DNA from: Psychromonas sp. MME1
GTDB lineage: Bacteria > Pseudomonadota > Gammaproteobacteria > Enterobacterales > Psychromonadaceae
Direction of reading: 5' to 3'
DNA: 64,000 nucleotides
NCBI RefSeq assembly: GCF_041080865.1
Contig: NZ_CP160906.1
Location: 3,247,629-3,311,628, forward strand
In this document: in pieces, positions 911-1,545 of the stretch
How positions within the stretch are numbered: position 1 is the stretch's first letter
Layout: every line of letters begins with the position of its first letter
The notes under the pieces: model-generated
The model's database searches: none
What the model was told of the DNA's origin: nothing
What the model saw: the letters and a program-made list of their open reading frames with translations, nothing else
Translations under genes and position numbers: made by a program

Positions 911-1027
911 GTCTAGCAACCATAGCGCTGTGGTCCCACCTGATCCCATTCCGAACTCAGAAGTGAAACGCAGCTGCGCCGATGGTAGTGTGGGGTCTCC
1001 CCATGTGAGAGTAGGTCATTGCTAGAC
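911..1027 (+). rRNA. rrf: 5S ribosomal RNA
   Basis: Complete 5S rRNA gene. The terminal helix is visible as GTCTAGCA at the 5' end pairing with TGCTAGAC at the 3' end. The interior has the conserved CCGAACTCAGAAGTGAAAC and CCGATGGTAGTGTGGGG segments. The length of about 117 nt is normal. It lies directly downstream of the 23S gene and upstream of a strong hairpin terminator, so it is the last RNA of the operon. No tRNA gene is seen after it. Confidence 0.96.
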
Positions 1028-1070: not shown

Positions 1071-1135
1071 GCTTTTTAGAGACGATAAAAGTGGCCCATC
1101 AACGTCAAGTAAGGACTAACGGACCTTACTCTCCT

Positions 1136-1253
1136 TCCCATTCCGAACTCAGAAGTGAAACGCAGCTGCGCCGATGGTACTTAGTTGCATTGAAGTCTCT
1201 TGAACCTCGTTCAAGGGACTTCAATGCAAAAGGGTCTCCCCATGTGAGAGTAG
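1136..1253 (+). pseudogene. 5S rRNA-like fragment split by a palindromic insertion
   Basis: Bases 1136-1179 are identical to the interior of the intact 5S gene (944-987), and 1232-1253 match its 3' interior. The five bases that separate these blocks in the real gene (GTGTG) are replaced here by about 52 bases carrying a 45-bp palindrome. The outer parts that form the 5S terminal helix are not recognisable on either side, so this looks like a non-functional, rearranged 5S copy rather than a second gene. It lies beyond the operon terminator. A functional, fragmented 5S cannot be excluded without RNA data. Confidence 0.75.
1185..1229. repeat. 45-bp palindrome inserted in the 5S-like fragment
   Basis: Two 21-base arms (1185-1205 and 1209-1229) separated by CTC are reverse complements except at one position that would form a G-U pair in RNA. 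The arms begin TTGCATTGAAGT and end ACTTCAATGCAA. It sits exactly where the 5S-like sequence is interrupted. Confidence 0.85.
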
Positions 1254-1315
1254 TGCGAGTATCGCGATAGCGATGTGTCACGAGCTTCGGTGTTCTGCGC
1301 CGACCTTCCATCGCC

Positions 1316-1377
1316 AAGCGCTTAAACGAAAAATCCCTGTTGACGATGTCAGCAGGGATTTTTTCGTTTAAGCGCTT
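1316..1377. terminator. long hairpin, probable bidirectional terminator
   Basis: Arms of about 24 bases (AAGCGCTTAAACGAAAAATC on the left, its complement on the right with one extra T) flank a loop of about 13 bases. The right arm contains CAGGGATTTTTTCG, so a GC stem followed by T residues exists. The stem then continues through the T run with a perfectly paired outer part, which makes it longer than a normal terminator. Confidence 0.6.
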
Positions 1378-1545
1378 GATGATGACCACTTGAACATGGG
1401 GATTATAAAAGGCATGCCGAAGGCATTTCCTTTCATGTTAGGGCTGCGAATTTGGCGTTAGCCAAGGTCTATGAGCGGGCTAAGCGTGCTCTGGTTGTTT
1501 GCCGACAGGTAAGTGTCACGAGCAGTGTTCACTCATCGCTCAAGT

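What the first reader, a model, noticed from the sequence alone, without database searches (positions are those of the whole stretch)
1136..1253. 5S rRNA fragment interrupted by a 45-bp palindrome, just beyond the rrn terminator
A 44-bp block and a 22-bp block identical to the neighbouring 5S gene are separated by about 52 bp containing a nearly perfect 21-bp-arm hairpin. Flanking termini do not match 5S. It could be a pseudogene hit by a palindromic element, a rearrangement of a former second 5S, or, less likely, a 5S RNA with an intervening sequence that is excised.
Basis: partly seen in the sequence, partly recalled or inferred. Interest (0 to 1): 0.6.

Follow-up and report, generated by a model that had tools for sequence, protein, structure and literature searches.

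The report
5S gene remnant with structured inserts
Just past a ribosomal RNA operon of a Psychromonas marine bacterium lies a broken 5S rRNA gene copy split by hairpin-forming inserts; such remnants are already known, but one insert belongs to an apparently undescribed structured repeat that recurs beside 5S genes in several bacterial families.

Summary
In detail: 44 bp (1136-1179) and 22 bp (1232-1253) are identical to the neighbouring 5S gene and are separated by a 20/21-matched hairpin. It is neither an assembly error nor a one-off: the same unit occurs at three more rrn loci of this genome and in three other Psychromonas species. The palindrome occurs nowhere else in this genome. It lies in the 5S helix IV region and was ancestrally imperfect (13-16 of 21 positions pair in six other complete copies); the window copy was made near-perfect by a change templated on its own 3' arm. 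The unit lacks the helix I 5' strand, gives no Rfam 5S match, follows a terminator and has no promoter-like site: most likely a 5S pseudogene. Stepanov & Fox (2021) described this kind in Pseudoalteromonas and Peptococcaceae; Psychromonas is a new host. New here: the third insert (1254-1308) is a copy of a ~70-nt element with strong covariation, in 23 of 24 Psychromonas genomes, in tandem rrn-distal arrays and also dispersed. Diverged versions follow native 5S genes in three other families. RNA-level constraint is likely, not proven; function is untested.

The parts
912..1027 (+). native 5S rRNA gene of this rrn operon
   Evidence: Rfam RF00001, 102.6 bits
1037..1070 (+). intrinsic terminator of the rrn operon (T1)
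   Evidence: 15-pair stem-loop plus T run
1091..1098 (+). GTGGCCCA, remnant of 5S GTGGTCCCA (5' limit of the remnant; helix I 5' strand absent)
   Evidence: sequence; alignment with other copies
1099..1135 (+). first insert (ES1), deletion derivative of a longer hairpin-bearing insert seen in other species
   Evidence: alignment of nine remnants
1136..1179 (+). 5S core block identical to 944-987
1180..1231 (+). second insert (ES2), replaces the 5' part of helix IV
1185..1229 (.). near-perfect palindrome, arms 1185-1205 and 1209-1229
   Evidence: 20/21 complementary, -31.0 kcal/mol versus -13.7 to -17.7 in six other complete copies
1232..1253 (+). 5S block identical to 993-1014
1254..1308 (+). 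third insert (ES3): copy of a structured repeat family; model match 1247-1317
   Evidence: covariance model R2, 70.9 bits, E 4.6e-19
1309..1320 (+). CATCGCCAAGCG, 5S 3' end (other helix I type of this genome)
   Evidence: identical to the 3' end of the native 5S at other rrn loci
1329..1363 (.). second terminator-like hairpin with A-rich and T-rich flanks (T2), same as the terminator behind native 5S at other loci
   Evidence: inverted repeat I3, sequence
1370..1402 (-). inverted copy of the 5S 3' tail
   Evidence: inverted repeats I1 and I4; same feature downstream of native 5S in other species
1447..1497 (+). degenerate further copy of the structured repeat
   Evidence: model R2, E 1.4e-4
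1498..1537 (+). degenerate further copy of the structured repeat
   Evidence: model R2, E 3.3e-4

Best explanation
It is a 5S rRNA pseudogene unit in a short rrn-distal array. A tandem 5S copy lost its 5' end and acquired three inserts; it is kept similar to the native 5S genes and spread among rrn operons by recombination and gene conversion (inferred). The palindrome is a Psychromonas-specific expansion in the helix IV region that began as an imperfect hairpin; in this copy the 5' arm was rewritten to match the 3' arm, as expected of template switching at a quasipalindrome during DNA synthesis (pattern shown, mechanism inferred). The third insert is a copy of a structured repeat family (GNNA-loop hairpin plus a second hairpin, closed by a stem that uses the 5S 3' strand), which forms tandem arrays after rrn terminators across the genus and has also spread to intergenic sites. 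The unit is transcribed, if at all, only by read-through and does not yield a working 5S rRNA (inferred). The structured repeat is probably constrained as RNA (inferred from covariation, a conserved U-G pair and a G-U bias); what it does is not known, my guess being a read-through RNA fold at rrn 3' ends that also spreads as a repeat.
For: Same unit at 4 rrn loci and in 4 species. No Rfam 5S match at E<=1; terminator before it and no promoter-like site. Shared native/remnant variants: in G023 both native 5S and remnant at one locus read CCCTTTCCGAACTC, and in G006 both read GTGGTACCA, which fits gene conversion. Palindrome: 20/21 paired here versus 13-16/21 in six others; 8 of 9 differences from the own-genome 864-kb copy, and 6 of 7 from the other-species consensus, equal the complement of the 3' arm. 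Third insert: 322 cells with double changes against 91.9 expected, covariation 0.409 against 0.126; G-U against A-C mismatches 88:33 on the + strand; in 23 of 24 Psychromonas genomes.
Against: The 5S core has stayed 93-100% identical to native 5S across species, which could mean function rather than gene conversion. No transcript data were available. Palindrome correction at DNA level, seen here in ES2, could also produce covariation in the third insert. The 88:33 count treats related sequences as independent.
Confidence: 0.72

Rival explanations
1. The unit is an expressed, functional expanded 5S rRNA or a 5S with an intervening sequence that is cut out.
For: 5S core blocks are perfectly conserved here; expanded 5S rRNAs with hairpin inserts exist (PMC7812874); the insert can fold on its own.
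Against: Helix I and most of helix II lack their 5' strands; no Rfam 5S match at E<=1; lies after a terminator with no promoter-like site; two of the four copies in this genome are truncated inside the insert; normal 5S genes are present at all the rrn loci examined.
Confidence: 0.04
2. A mobile palindromic element jumped into a 5S pseudogene and created the central palindrome.
For: The genome does hold REP-like palindromes and a Y1 transposase gene, and the third insert belongs to a dispersed family; in P. ingrahamii one copy of that family sits in one of three tandem repeat copies and is absent from the other two.
Against: The central palindrome itself is found only inside these 5S remnants in this genome, at one fixed 5S position in four species; a pattern scan of 84,980 species genomes for a 28-58-nt insert at this 5S position gave real hits only in Psychromonas ossibalaenae. 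A similar argument does apply to the third insert.
Confidence: 0.1
3. The covariation of the third insert is a DNA-level effect: hairpins in a replication- and transcription-stressed region are repeatedly corrected into palindromes, and there is no RNA function.
For: Such a correction is visible in the neighbouring palindrome of this very copy; quasipalindrome template switching is an established mutation process (PMC7202029).
Against: Correction does not explain a U-G pair kept in 114 of 122 sequences (about 93%), the GNNA-type tetraloop, the conserved GAGC-UCU-GCGA apex, or the excess of G-U over A-C mismatches on one strand; nor conservation of these motifs beside 5S genes in other families.
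Confidence: 0.3
4. Assembly artefact at the end of an rrn operon.
For: Another rrn locus of this assembly (about 2.604 Mb) looks scrambled, with a 23S-like stretch inside its 5S gene, and the 165-kb copy ends in a run of 11 C.
Against: The same unit with the same junctions occurs at other loci and in independently assembled genomes, including NZ_KB907018, NZ_KB907028 and NZ_KB907039 of P. ossibalaenae.
Confidence: 0.01

Closest known systems
rrn-distal 5S rRNA remnants with insertions (Stepanov & Fox 2021, RNA 27:133, PMC7812874)
   Same: 5S-like core, one or both termini missing, large hairpin-forming inserts, downstream of normal 5S genes at the distal end of rrn operons, several copies each preceded by a terminator, normal 5S genes elsewhere in the genome.
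   Different: Genus Psychromonas, not in their list of taxa; three inserts; the third insert is a covarying repeat family with dispersed copies and with relatives beside 5S genes in other families. Their insert sequences could not be compared (their supplement was not readable here).
Expanded 5S rRNAs (Halococcus, Thermoanaerobacterales, Pseudoalteromonas piscicida; same paper)
   Same: Hairpin expansion in the conserved 5S core; an insertion in helix IV is also known (Desulfitobacterium dichloroeliminans).
   Different: Those have an intact 5S core; this one has lost the 5' strand of helix I.
REP/BIME elements with RAYT (Y1) transposases (general knowledge)
   Same: Short hairpin-bearing repeats in intergenic DNA; one Y1 transposase gene lies in the REP-rich region of this genome where the dispersed copies of the third insert are found.
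   Different: Two-hairpin three-way-junction element, with a second, older-looking home in rrn-distal arrays; mobilisation by the Y1 protein not shown.
Quasipalindrome-associated template-switch mutations (PMC7202029)
   Same: Cluster of changes that turns an imperfect inverted repeat into a near-perfect one.
   Different: Inferred from one natural sequence comparison only.

Membership tests
rrn-distal 5S remnants (Stepanov & Fox 2021) | high similarity to 5S but one or both terminal parts missing | tested here: met
   66 of 66 nt identical in two blocks; 5' strand of helix I absent
rrn-distal 5S remnants (Stepanov & Fox 2021) | large insertion(s) in the 5S-like core | tested here: met
   inserts at 1099-1135, 1180-1231, 1254-1308
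rrn-distal 5S remnants (Stepanov & Fox 2021) | downstream of a normal 5S gene at the distal end of an rrn operon, preceded by a terminator, sometimes in several copies | tested here: met
   native 5S 912-1027, terminator 1037-1070; tandem arrays
rrn-distal 5S remnants (Stepanov & Fox 2021) | not transcribed into functional 5S rRNA | not testable with these tools
   no transcript data; no promoter-like site found
functional expanded 5S rRNA | complete conserved 5S core able to fold around the insert | tested here: not met
   no Rfam RF00001 match at E<=1 in 1020-1620; missing 5' strand of helix I
dispersed palindromic (REP-like) element, applied to the central palindrome | copies at unrelated genomic sites | tested here: not met
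   own-genome BLAST finds it only in rrn-distal remnants
dispersed palindromic (REP-like) element, applied to the third insert | copies at unrelated genomic sites | tested here: met
   8 non-rrn copies between 3,314,665 and 3,353,410 in the own genome; many in other species
REP/BIME mobilised by RAYT, applied to the third insert | association with and mobilisation by a Y1 (RAYT) transposase | tested here: inconclusive
   one Y1 gene in the same region, flanked mainly by other palindromes; mobilisation not testable
any Rfam family, applied to the third insert | match at the gathering score | tested here: not met
   only LSU and 5S rRNA in the window; nothing relevant at E<=1

The most novel reading that the evidence does not exclude
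The rrn-distal 5S remnants are not dead genes but carriers of an undescribed structured RNA element. It has been tied to rrn 3' ends since before the split of several families of the order, is built partly from 5S ends (direct and inverted tails), is kept as RNA structure, and acts on read-through transcripts at rrn 3' ends while also spreading as an intergenic repeat.
Probability: 0.3. Interest if true: 0.75.

Novelty: new variant of a known kind. Interest (0 to 1): 0.5.

Why it matters
It extends the published 5S-remnant phenomenon to another genus. It shows how a palindrome inside such a remnant becomes near-perfect by an apparently templated change. It suggests that at least one part of these supposed pseudogene arrays evolves under structural constraint and recurs beside 5S genes in several families, which would make the regions behind rrn terminators worth testing for RNA function.

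Tried and rejected
Plasmid searches with the unit and with native 5S gave only 5S-core matches; no Pseudoalteromonas plasmid remnant was among the rows listed, so a direct comparison with Stepanov & Fox's inserts was not possible. The pattern scan of genome contigs returned Psittacicella, Enterovibrio and Grimontia hits, which are ordinary 5S genes whose GATGGTACC in helix II satisfied the pattern; rejected. Low-scoring Rfam miRNA matches are chance hairpin matches. I first read the dispersed copies as possible tRNAs; ARAGORN found none. Two class-level model hits outside the order (E 0.004 and 0.009) are not near 5S and are expected by chance; rejected. One order-level hit (G364) is a non-rrn site. 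Further order-level hits at E 3e-4 to 0.05 in G081, G112, G134, G171, G194, G283, G306, G351 and G352 were not inspected. Literature searches for rrn-distal palindromes, Psychromonas REP or RAYT, and structured RNAs downstream of 5S found nothing relevant. An excised 5S intervening sequence was considered and set aside.

Full report
Check of the observation. The window lies at 3,247,629-3,311,628 of a 3.59-Mb single-contig genome. The genus is Psychromonas: contigs of its congener G016 have the same lengths (36,860, 31,103 and 23,518), matching positions and same sequence as NZ_KB907018, NZ_KB907028 and NZ_KB907039 of P. ossibalaenae.

Recurrence. The unit is found behind three further rrn operons of the same genome, two of them truncated inside the insert, one also hit by a roughly 160-bp inserted sequence, and in G006, G016 and G023. 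An assembly error or single decay event is therefore excluded. A scan of 84,980 species genomes for a 28-58-nt insert at this 5S position gave true hits only in P. ossibalaenae; the other hits were ordinary 5S genes.

Anatomy. Relative to native 5S the unit reads: GTGGCCCA (5S-like), insert 1 (1099-1135), 5S block (1136-1179), insert 2 with the palindrome (1180-1231), 5S block (1232-1253), insert 3 (1254-1308), 5S 3' end (1309-1320), a second terminator hairpin (1329-1363), and an inverted 5S tail (1370-1402). The 5' strand of helix I is missing, the helix IV 5' strand is replaced, and the Rfam 5S model does not match at E<=1. A terminator stands in front and no promoter-like site was found.

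The palindrome. In six other complete copies the arms pair at only 13-16 of 21 positions (-13.7 to -17.7 kcal/mol); in the window they pair at 20 of 21 (-31.0). The own-genome copy at 864 kb has the same 3' arm but the old 5' arm; 8 of the 9 differences in the window's 5' arm equal the complement of the 3' arm, and 6 of 7 do so against the other-species consensus. This is the signature of quasipalindrome template switching, a known process (PMC7202029). It shows that the striking symmetry is recent and need not mean function. The palindrome was not found elsewhere in the genome.

Recombination with native genes. In G023 the native 5S and the remnant of the same locus share CCCTTTCCGAACTC; in G006 both share GTGGTACCA. 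This fits gene conversion and can explain why the 5S core stays intact in a pseudogene (inference).

Third insert. Copies of the segment after GAGAGTAG occur many times. An alignment of 37 gave 84 cells with double changes against 28.5 in shuffles, and a covariation score of 0.374 against 0.125. With 125 distinct copies aligned by the model the figures are 322 against 91.9, and 0.409 against 0.126. The second alignment was fitted to the structure and therefore leans towards it; the first was a plain MAFFT alignment. The proposed fold is a closing stem GGCGA/UCGCC, whose 3' strand is the 5S 3' end; a hairpin with a GNNA-type loop and a conserved U-G pair at its base (114 of 122); and a second hairpin GGNN-GA-GC-UCU-GC-GA-NNCC. 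The minimum-free-energy fold of single sequences does not always return this arrangement. G-U outnumbers A-C mismatches 88:33 on the + strand, outside the constitutive U-G pair. That favours constraint on the RNA of this strand, but the counts are not independent. In the window copy itself the second hairpin and the closing stem are weakened.

Distribution. The model matches 23 of 24 Psychromonas genomes, often with tens of copies. Many copies form arrays behind rrn operons with a period of about 200 bp, alternating terminator, inverted 5S tail and direct 5S tail carrying the insert. Others are intergenic: in the own genome, eight lie between 3,314,665 and 3,353,410, a region rich in REP-like palindromes that holds the one Y1 transposase gene found. 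In G006 one copy sits within one of three tandem repeat copies and is absent from the other two, with about 10 bp of the target missing and no clear target duplication.

Other families. All four hit loci lie downstream of a native 5S gene, although the expected number of chance hits at those E-values is below one. A second model trained partly on them found more; of the new loci I could inspect, G080 and G037 are again behind native 5S and G364 is not. Their hairpin 1 is longer and different in sequence, yet covariation holds (this alignment contains the window copies and two chance hits). Inverted 5S tails downstream of the native gene score above most or all shuffles in eight of the nine non-window loci tested; G080 does not exceed the highest shuffle. 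E-values of the second model for its own training loci are not independent evidence. In the window the first 300 bp after the native gene show no significant inverted tail; the one at 1370-1402 is further on.

Comparison with the known. [quoted passage not shown] The finding is the same kind in another genus. The structured, partly dispersed repeat within it is not mentioned in the passages I read and is not in Rfam. I could not read their supplement, so whether their inserts include it is open.

Verdict. The finding itself is a new member of a known kind; the third insert makes it a variant worth following. RNA function remains unproven, and the palindrome correction seen next door is a live alternative source of covariation.

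Noticed in passing
window 1254-1308 and genus-wide (model R1/R2): Structured repeat family with strong covariation, tens of copies per Psychromonas genome, in rrn-distal arrays and dispersed; diverged relatives behind 5S genes in other families.
   Followed up: partly
own genome 3,312,000-3,356,000 (L161-L163), just beyond the window: Region rich in GGGGCG-type REP-like palindromes with one Y1 (RAYT-like) transposase gene at 3,325,732-3,326,010 and eight dispersed copies of the structured repeat.
   Followed up: partly
own genome about 2,604,300-2,604,700 (L017): The native 5S gene there carries a 16-nt insert identical to a 23S segment (ACTCCGGGGATAACAG), and the adjacent 23S end looks scrambled; a chimeric operon or an assembly artefact.
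   Followed up: no
own genome 165,200-165,380 (L012) and 344,310-344,480 (L011): A roughly 160-bp sequence with terminal ATACCAAYTCCG/CGGAATTGGTAT inverted repeats (MITE-like) inside the first insert of one 5S remnant, and a related one beside another remnant.
   Followed up: no
window 912-1027 versus other rrn loci: Two kinds of 5S helix I coexist in the genome, GTCTAGCAA/TTGCTAGAC (window) and GCTTGGCGA/TCGCCAAGC (the other loci inspected with full 5S termini), each kept paired and linked to its own terminator type.
   Followed up: no
own genome 2,847,438-2,847,555 (L016): A second, nearly intact 5S gene (96.9% over 98 nt) with a different helix I follows the first 5S and its terminator, ahead of a tRNA-like sequence.
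   Followed up: no
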